The notes under the pieces are model-generated. The model made no database searches. It worked only from the letters and a program-made list of their open reading frames with translations, and had not been told where the DNA came from. Below, one piece after another: positions 43,368 through 44,963 of a stretch of DNA of 64,000 bases. Position 1 is the first letter of the stretch; every line of letters starts with the position of its first letter. Source of the stretch: an uncultured Anaerolineae bacterium (lineage in GTDB: Bacteria; Chloroflexota; Anaerolineae; J036; Brachytrichaceae). The translations under genes were made by a program, and so were the position numbers. Where the stretch lies: the NCBI GenBank assembly GCA_938034415.1, contig CALHLE010000029.1:1-64000 (forward strand), in the 5' to 3' direction.

Positions 43368-43715
43368 TCAGGCTTGCACGGCCTTGACGACCGCGGCGAA
43401 CGCATCGGCATCGCGCACTGCCAAATCGGCCAGGATCTTGCGATCGAGCCGCACATCAGCAGCTTTCAAAGCCTGAATAAGCCTGCTGTAGGTCGTGCCG
43501 TTGAGGCGAGCTGCGGCGTTGATGCGCGTGATCCACAGGCTGCGCAGCTCGCGGCGGCGATTGCGCCGGTCGCGCGTGGCGTAGGCCATCGCATGCAAGC
43601 GCGCCTCGTTGGCCTTGCGGAAGTGCTTGTGCCGCGCGCCGAACTGGCCTTTGGTCGCGGCGAGCACGCGGTTGTGGCGTCGGCGTGTCTTCACGCCGCC
43701 CTTTACTCTAGCCAT
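43368..43715 (-). CDS. rplT: 50S ribosomal protein L20
   Basis: 115 residues. MARVKGGVKTRRRHNRVLAATKGQFGARHKHFRKANEARLHAMAYATRDRRNRRRELRSLWI is the long basic L20 N-terminus. The globular C-terminal domain (YSRLIQALKAADVRLDRKILADLAV) follows. L20 is an early assembly protein on 23S rRNA and represses its own operon in several bacteria. It is last in infC-rpmI-rplT. Confidence 0.96.
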   Translation of the reverse strand: MARVKGGVKTRRRHNRVLAATKGQFGARHKHFRKANEARLHAMAYATRDRRNRRRELRSLWITRINAAARLNGTTYSRLIQALKAADVRLDRKILADLAVRDADAFAAVVKAVQA

Positions 43716-43753: not shown

Positions 43754-43963
43754 CTACTTGTTCTTCAGATACGGGGCGAGTTTGCGAATGCGCTTCTGGA
43801 TGCCCTTGCCCTCCACTTCGGTCATCTCGACGAAAAGCGCCTTCACGCGCGCCGGCTTCTTGCGCCGAAAGTGGCTTTTGCCTTGGCGGGTGCGCATGAG
43901 CTTGCCGCTTCCCGTCACTTTGAAGCGCTTGGACGTGGACTTATGCGTCTTGATCTTGCCCAT
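43754..43963 (-). CDS. rpmI: 50S ribosomal protein L35
   Basis: 69 residues. MGKIKTHKSTSKRFKVTGSGKLMRTRQGKSH is the conserved basic L35 start; it ends IRKLAPYLKNK. It lies between infC and rplT, the classical order, and GAGGAG precedes the ATG. Confidence 0.96.
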   Translation of the reverse strand: MGKIKTHKSTSKRFKVTGSGKLMRTRQGKSHFRRKKPARVKALFVEMTEVEGKGIQKRIRKLAPYLKNK

Positions 43964-44057: not shown

Positions 44058-44882
44058 CTATGGCAGCCCGAACTGCTCGTTGGCCCGCTTCTGCGCCAGC
44101 TTCTCGCGATTCTGGCGCCGGCGCAGCTCTGCCGCTTGCGCTTTGCTCGACAACTTAGCACCCTCAACCGCGACCGGCTCGGTCGCGCGTCCGTTCAACG
44201 CCGTTTCCTCGGACTCGCCGTCCTCGGCATCCTCGGCTTCCTCGATCTCCTCCTCTTCTTCATTGTAACCCGCGGCGCGGTCGGCGGCGCGCTCGGCCTC
44301 GATGCGCTGTTGCGTTGACTTCAGGTGCGCCGCTGCCAGCGTTGCCGGCGTCGGCGCGATGACGGCGATCAGCGCCTTGCCTTCGAGATTCGGCGCGACT
44401 TCCACGAAGCCGATGTCCAACAACTCCTGCACAAACCGGTCGATCAGCTTGAGCGCCACATGCTGGTTGGCGACTTCGCGACCACGAAAGCGCAGATTGA
44501 GCTTGACTTTGTTGCCCGCTTGGAGGAAGCGCCGCGCCGCGCGAATCTTGAACGCCAGATGATGTTCGGTCGTCTTAGGGCGCAGTTGCACCCCTTTCAC
44601 CTCAATGGTCTTTTGGCTTTTCTTCGCTGCGCGCTCCTTCTTCTCCCTTTCGTATATGAAGCGCCCGTAGTCTATGATGCGACAGACCGGTGGGTCGGCA
44701 TTCGGCGCGACCTCGATAAGATCCATGCGCATGTTGCGCGCCAGCTCCAGCGCGTCGCGCGTGTCCAGGATGCCCTTGTTTGTGCCATCCGGCATAATCA
44801 CGCGCACCTGCGGCGCACGGATTTGGTTGTTGATTCGAAAGCTCTGCTGCGACGACGCTCGATTCGATCTTTGCTGCGCGAT
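44058..44882 (-). CDS. infC: Translation initiation factor IF-3 with probable AUC start
   Basis: 274 residues from the proposed ATC at 44882. The N-domain begins FRINNQIRAPQVRVIMPDGTNKGIL; the linker and C-domain follow (IDYGRFIYEREKKERAAKKSQ, EVKGVQLRPKTTEHHLAFKIRAARRFL, LEGKALIAVIAP). The conserved N-terminus reads through without any ATG, GTG or TTG: the first such codon in frame is a GTG after QIRAPQ, inside the domain. ATC lies 9 nt after GGAGG, recalling the AUU start of E. coli infC, which IF3 uses to regulate itself. The C-terminus carries an extra tail of about 80 residues, acidic (NEEEEEIEEAEDAEDGESEE) then basic. Confidence 0.9.
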   Translation of the reverse strand: MAQQRSNRASSQQSFRINNQIRAPQVRVIMPDGTNKGILDTRDALELARNMRMDLIEVAPNADPPVCRIIDYGRFIYEREKKERAAKKSQKTIEVKGVQLRPKTTEHHLAFKIRAARRFLQAGNKVKLNLRFRGREVANQHVALKLIDRFVQELLDIGFVEVAPNLEGKALIAVIAPTPATLAAAHLKSTQQRIEAERAADRAAGYNEEEEEIEEAEDAEDGESEETALNGRATEPVAVEGAKLSSKAQAAELRRRQNREKLAQKRANEQFGLP

Positions 44883-44896
44883 ACTCTCATTCCTCC

Positions 44897-44909
44897 CCCG
44901 CCAGGCGGG
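44897..44909 (-). promoter_or_regulatory. Small hairpin touching the infC Shine-Dalgarno site
   Basis: CCCGC and GCGGG pair over a 3-nt loop immediately before GGGGAGG on the infC leader RNA. A short reading frame ATG AGA ATG ... GAA TGA (44922-44887) runs through it and ends inside the Shine-Dalgarno/start region. Either could tune infC translation; both are inference. Confidence 0.4.
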
Positions 44910-44935
44910 ACTGCATTCTCATCGGACGGACGGGC

Positions 44936-44963
44936 ATTATAACCAGTTATCCCCGTAGTTCAA
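44936..44963 (-). promoter_or_regulatory. Promoter of infC-rpmI-rplT
   Basis: Minus strand TTGAAC (44963-44958), 16-nt spacer, TATAAT (44941-44936). The predicted leader before the ATC start is about 47 nt. Confidence 0.8.

What the first reader, a model, noticed from the sequence alone, without database searches (positions are those of the whole stretch)
44880..44922. infC probably starts at AUC behind a strong Shine-Dalgarno site
The conserved IF3 N-terminus continues upstream of the first in-frame GTG (44807) through 25 codons with no ATG, GTG or TTG. An ATC at 44882 lies 9 nt after GGAGG. The nearby ATG at 44890 is 1 nt from the Shine-Dalgarno site and runs into a stop in another frame. 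E. coli infC uses AUU, so that IF3 discriminates against its own start. A different rare codon in a distant phylum would be convergent or conserved autoregulation.
Basis: partly seen in the sequence, partly recalled or inferred. Interest (0 to 1): 0.65.

Follow-up and report, generated by a model that had tools for sequence, protein, structure and literature searches.

The report
IF3 gene starts at AUC codon
In this Roseilinea-like Chloroflexota bacterium the gene for translation factor IF3 almost certainly starts at the rare codon AUC, and nearly all of about 200 relatives across its phylum also avoid the three normal start codons there, extending to this phylum a self-limiting switch known from E. 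coli, Streptomyces and Staphylococcus.

Summary
infC lies on the minus strand. Its frame has a TGA stop at 44921-44919, then no ATG, GTG or TTG before GTG 44807, which lies inside the conserved IF3_N domain. ATC 44882-44880 stands 9 nt after GGAGG. All 25 intact infC genes of the window's family have ATC (15) or ATA (10) at that place. Across the phylum (200 distinct loci), in-frame codons at Shine-Dalgarno distance are ATC/ATA/ATT in 164 of 555 cases and ATG in none. In the same loci rpmI (54/54) and rplT (33/33) use normal starts. The start codon changed at least 23 times on the IF3 tree, never to ATG. Selection keeps the start non-canonical, not AUC itself. IF3 self-repression at its own start, known from E. 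coli, is the best explanation but was not tested here. AUC (Streptomyces) and AUA (S. aureus) infC starts are published, so this is a new member of a known kind. Two additions appear unreported in what I could search: a covarying hairpin abutting the Shine-Dalgarno site, confined to this family, and an apparent ACG start in another Chloroflexota family (17/17 genomes).

The parts
44880..44882 (-). ATC, proposed infC start codon
   Evidence: Only table-11 start-like codon between the in-frame stop and the IF3_N domain that also has an SD. Homologous position is ATC or ATA in 25/25 intact family loci.
44892..44896 (-). Shine-Dalgarno GGAGG, 9 nt before the ATC
   Evidence: GGAGG is invariant in the 22-sequence family alignment.
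44896..44910 (-). Hairpin TCCCGC-CTG-GCGGGG abutting (and by one G overlapping) the SD; core stem CCCGC/GCGGG 44909-44905 / 44901-44897
   Evidence: Present in 20/25 family loci directly before the SD against 0-3/25 at positions shifted 10-40 nt; 4/134 in other families. 4 of 5 pairs change on both sides; 18 such cells against 6.4 in shuffles.
44936..44941 (-). -10 box TATAAT
   Evidence: Promoter scan 10/12 matches, 0.0 expected in shuffles. TATAAT lies upstream of infC in 23/25 family loci.
44958..44963 (-). -35-like TTGAAC, spacer 16
44919..44921 (-). In-frame TGA stop that limits the infC frame upstream
44058..44882 (-). infC coding sequence, 274 codons from ATC (IF3_N residues 17-86, IF3_C residues 93-177, then a ~95-residue acidic/basic tail)
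   Evidence: Pfam PF05198 E 2e-29, PF00707 E 1.6e-26; TIGR00168 200.7 bits against cut-off 60.
43754..43963 (-). rpmI (L35), second gene, normal ATG start
   Evidence: Pfam PF01632 E 1.9e-12.
43368..43715 (-). rplT (L20), third gene, normal ATG start
   Evidence: Pfam PF00453 E 1.9e-38.

Best explanation
infC starts at AUC 44882, reached through the strong SD GGAGG, and the first amino acid is presumably formyl-methionine from the initiator tRNA. The codon is kept non-canonical by selection because IF3, which discriminates against start codons other than AUG/GUG/UUG, then represses its own synthesis when abundant and lets it rise when scarce. Shown here: the position, the lack of alternatives, conservation as AUC/AUA in the family and AUH in the phylum, and repeated turnover of the third base without ATG. 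Inferred: that the codon is used in the cell, that IF3 acts on it, and that the purpose is homeostasis. A short hairpin abutting the SD in this family probably keeps the SD single-stranded and free of pairing with the leader, so that a weak codon still gives enough protein. That role is a guess from its position.
For: Frame and SD; domain would be cut by the GTG start. Family: 25/25 intact loci ATC/ATA. Phylum: ATH 164/555 against 95/2304 background, ATG 0/555 at SD distance. Controls in the same loci: rpmI 54/54 and rplT 33/33 canonical. At least 23 changes of start codon on a tree of 84 IF3 proteins; the only canonical state is one TTG, although ATA to ATG is a single transition. E. coli positive control: GGAGGAATAAGGT-ATT. 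IF3 columns invariant against E. coli include Y72 and Y77 of the window protein (E. coli Y70, Y75 by my count) and R131. Literature: IF3 represses non-canonical starts and autoregulates; infC is ATC in Streptomyces (PMC5472188); AUA in S. aureus mapped by Ribo-Ret (PMC13009471); ATT proven by peptides in Xanthomonas (PMC5559785). The initiation region folds less than its shuffles, z +2.3.
Against: No protein, ribosome-profiling or reporter data exist for this organism. A few loci in the phylum may use GTG or TTG (L099, L136, L173, L195), so the rule is not absolute. Codons between ATC and the domain evolve almost without third-position bias (40/47/50 changes at positions 1/2/3), so the coding signal there is weak. 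Loci are related and genomes anonymous.
Confidence: 0.85

Rival explanations
1. Translation starts at GTG 44807 and the upstream conservation is accidental.
For: It is the first canonical codon in frame and what a standard gene caller reports.
Against: It removes the first positions of IF3_N, including the RIN..IR motif that is invariant up to E. coli. The sequence before it, AACCAAATCCGTGCGCCGCAG, holds no SD. Relatives have ATC/ATA at SD distance.
Confidence: 0.02
2. Translation starts at ATG 44890 and a frameshift, programmed or by sequencing error, joins it to infC.
For: In one relative (G023, L025) the ATG frame runs into infC for part of the gene.
Against: The ATG is 1 nt from the SD. 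It is absent in L007 (GGAGGAATAAG) and in all other genera of the family. G023 has a second frame break at residues 120-123 and looks like an error-prone assembly.
Confidence: 0.02
3. AUC is used, but the reason is simply low constitutive IF3 output, without feedback by IF3.
For: Non-canonical codons lower yield in any case (about 10% of AUG in S. aureus reporters, PMC13009471). A weak codon would then be tuned to demand.
Against: Low output could be had by a weak SD, yet strong SDs are kept. Feedback is demonstrated in E. coli (Butler 1987, cited in PMC5472188).
Confidence: 0.15
4. The SD-abutting hairpin is itself an operator bound by a product of the operon (IF3 or L20).
For: Covariation and strict position in the family; the operon is infC-rpmI-rplT and L20 leaders exist in other phyla.
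Against: Only 5-7 bp with variable loop of 3-6 nt and no conserved unpaired bases; no Rfam leader match. Absent in genus g2 of the family.
Confidence: 0.12

Closest known systems
E. coli infC, AUU start with IF3 autorepression
   Same: Operon order infC-rpmI-rplT, strong SD, ATH start, near-identical spacer (GGAGGAATAAGGTATT against GGAGGAATGAGAGTATC; GGAGGAATAAGAGTATC in L007).
   Different: AUU rather than AUC; thrS directly upstream in E. coli, glutamate dehydrogenase here; no SD-abutting hairpin seen in the E. coli stretch read here; feedback proven only in E. coli.
Streptomyces infC, ATC start (PMC5472188)
   Same: Same start codon; IF3 shown there to repress another non-canonical start (sigR GTC).
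   Different: Different phylum; leader architecture not compared here.
Staphylococcus aureus infC, AUA start (PMC13009471)
   Same: ATA is the other codon used in the window's family; extended SD.
   Different: Initiation mapped by experiment there, by comparison here.
Xanthomonas euvesicatoria infC, ATT start (PMC5559785)
   Same: Same logic: no canonical codon between stop and domain, GC-rich genome.
   Different: Peptide evidence there.

Membership tests
IF3 (infC, TIGR00168) | Both IF3 domains above curated cut-offs | tested here: met
infC genes with a non-canonical start | No ATG/GTG/TTG between in-frame stop and IF3_N domain | tested here: met
infC genes with a non-canonical start | AUH codon at normal distance from a strong SD, conserved in relatives | tested here: met
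infC genes with a non-canonical start | Initiation at that codon shown by peptides or ribosome profiling | not testable with these tools
   No experimental data for this organism are held.
IF3 start-codon autoregulation (E. coli type) | Change to AUG derepresses and abolishes response to IF3 | not testable with these tools
   Needs reporter fusions.
L20 leader (Rfam RF00558) or other catalogued leader | Covariance-model match upstream of infC | tested here: not met
   No match in the window at gathering score or in L001, L009 at E 0.1.

The most novel reading that the evidence does not exclude
In the Roseilinea family the infC leader carries a two-part initiation control element: a covarying hairpin abutting the SD, working together with an obligatorily non-canonical start codon. 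In Chloroflexota at large, infC start codons drift freely over AUC, AUA, AUU, CUG and even ACG, as long as they are codons that IF3 rejects.
Probability: 0.35. Interest if true: 0.55.

Novelty: new member of a known kind. Interest (0 to 1): 0.4.

Why it matters
It shows that what evolution preserves at the IF3 gene in a whole phylum is the property of being a poor start codon, not a given codon. That is strong comparative evidence that IF3 self-control is old and widely kept. It also means that gene callers probably truncate IF3 in most Chloroflexota genomes. The apparent ACG start in one family offers a natural case for testing how weak a start codon an essential gene can bear.

Tried and rejected
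Rfam search for a known leader in the window and 20 loci: none upstream of infC. A general RNA fold of the initiation region shows less structure than shuffles, so no large leader structure is claimed. RNAalifold on the leader gave only three pairs; the hairpin was instead tested with named pairs and with position-shift controls. Other SD-ATH ORFs in the window were checked: 40418 is antisense to a Pfam-less frame and overlaps a plus-strand gene. Coding signal by codon position between ATC and the domain was inconclusive. The Myxococcus dsg paper is not held. An automatic start caller gave false CTG/GTG calls at some loci (for example L095, L138, L144, L161), which were read by eye.

Full report
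What is there. infC is on the minus strand with rpmI and rplT behind it. Reading the infC frame upstream, the first stop is TGA 44921-44919. Between it and GTG 44807 there is no ATG, GTG or TTG. ATC 44882-44880 lies 9 nt after GGAGG 44896-44892. Pfam IF3_N aligns from its first position at residue 17 of the ATC product, so the GTG start would lose the beginning of the domain. A promoter (TTGAAC, 16 nt, TATAAT at 44941-44936) lies just upstream, with 0.0 such sites expected in shuffles. This implies a leader of about 45 nt and therefore no room for a large leader RNA.

Who it belongs to. The nearest named relatives, at 85-92% IF3 identity, are Candidatus Roseilinea and Thermoflexales bacteria, Anaerolineae, Chloroflexota.

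Family test. Of 28 genomes in the family, which also make up the whole order held here, 26 gave infC. Twenty-five are intact. At the homologous place they have ATC (15) or ATA (10), 4-9 nt after GGAGG, and no canonical codon at that distance that could replace it. The out-of-frame ATG 44890 is missing from L007 and from all other genera. The one genome in which that ATG is in frame (G023) has two frame breaks in the gene and is probably a poor assembly.

Phylum test. I took infC loci from 145 class and 161 phylum genomes, choosing across families, and anchored them on the IF3_N motif. A test blind to codon identity asked which in-frame codons stand 4-11 nt after an SD match of at least 5 bases. 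ATC, ATA and ATT were 71, 53 and 40 of 555, against 31, 31 and 33 of 2304 elsewhere in the same stretch. ATG was 0 of 555, GTG 2, TTG 3. One hundred and sixty of 200 distinct loci have an ATH there and 5 a canonical codon; many of the rest have a weaker SD but still an ATH. In the same loci rpmI starts with ATG/GTG/TTG in 54 of 54 and rplT in 33 of 33. On a tree of 84 IF3 proteins the start codon changes at least 23 times among ATC, ATA, ATT and one TTG, never to ATG, although ATA to ATG is a single transition. This is what selection for 'anything IF3 rejects' would give.

Mechanism. E. coli infC, read here as a control, has GGAGGAATAAGGT-ATT. Published work says that IF3 represses non-canonical starts and so its own AUU start, that Streptomyces infC starts with ATC (PMC5472188), and that S. 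aureus infC starts with AUA by ribosome profiling (PMC13009471). Xanthomonas infC starts with ATT by peptides (PMC5559785). A survey of genes preferring non-AUG starts (Gvozdjak and Samanta 2020) is cited in PMC9845219 but was not held. From my own knowledge it includes infC, and Myxococcus dsg starts at AUC. The same feedback is the best explanation here; it was not tested.

An extra part. In 20 of 25 family loci a hairpin of at least 5 bp ends directly at the SD. At positions shifted by 10-40 nt such hairpins occur in 0-3 of 25, and in other Chloroflexota families 4 of 134 have one at the SD. Its stem changes sequence but keeps pairing (CCCGC/GCGGG, TCTGC/GCAGA, CTACCC/GGGTAG). Four of five pairs show changes on both sides, 18 cells against 6.4 in shuffles, 0 of 500 shuffles as high; slid controls are lower. 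Genus g2 and probably g3 lack it. A role in keeping the SD open is my guess.

Beyond the family. In family f59 (17 of 17 genomes that cover the start, four genera) infC reads GGAGG-CT-TGA-TCC-ACG-GCA-TTT, with a stop two codons before ACG. The ACG lies where family f49 has ATC. Family f54 has CTG at SD distance in 8 of 8 loci read. These are readings of sequence only.

Verdict. The finding is right, its mechanism is likely, and its kind is known. The phylum-wide rule, the hairpin and the ACG family are what add to knowledge.

Noticed in passing
L241-L257 (family f59), e.g. L250 minus strand, codon 6 before the RIN motif: infC appears to start at ACG, 8 nt after GGAGG, with an in-frame TGA two codons upstream, in 17/17 genomes of four genera; the same position is ATC in family f49.
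   Followed up: partly
L241-L257, about 110 nt before the ACG (L247:1342-1494): Conserved infC leader: -10-like TATACT, AGAGAGGCTGTCC..CTCTCACCT..GAGGT..GGGGAC with a possible pseudoknot, then a terminator hairpin with a T-run ending about 10 nt before the SD; looks like an L20-type attenuator but has no Rfam match.
   Followed up: partly
L218, L220, L224, L259-L263 (family f54); L205: infC start appears to be CTG at SD distance.
   Followed up: partly
window 44058-44345, minus strand: IF3 carries a C-terminal tail of about 95 residues (acidic stretch, then basic), conserved in the family; E. coli IF3 lacks it and Myxococcus IF3 has an unrelated-looking 66-residue one.
   Followed up: no
L025/L027 (G023): infC broken by two frame changes in one relative with long contigs, probably sequencing indels.
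   Followed up: partly
L007 and L240:3100-3170: SD-to-start spacer of infC is nearly the same in a Roseilinea relative (GGAGGAATAAGAGTATC) and E. coli (GGAGGAATAAGGTATT); chance or shared constraint unknown.
   Followed up: no
L145:1145-1168: A CRISPR repeat family match (RF01356, 41.5 bits) in the infC locus of another Chloroflexota genome.
   Followed up: no
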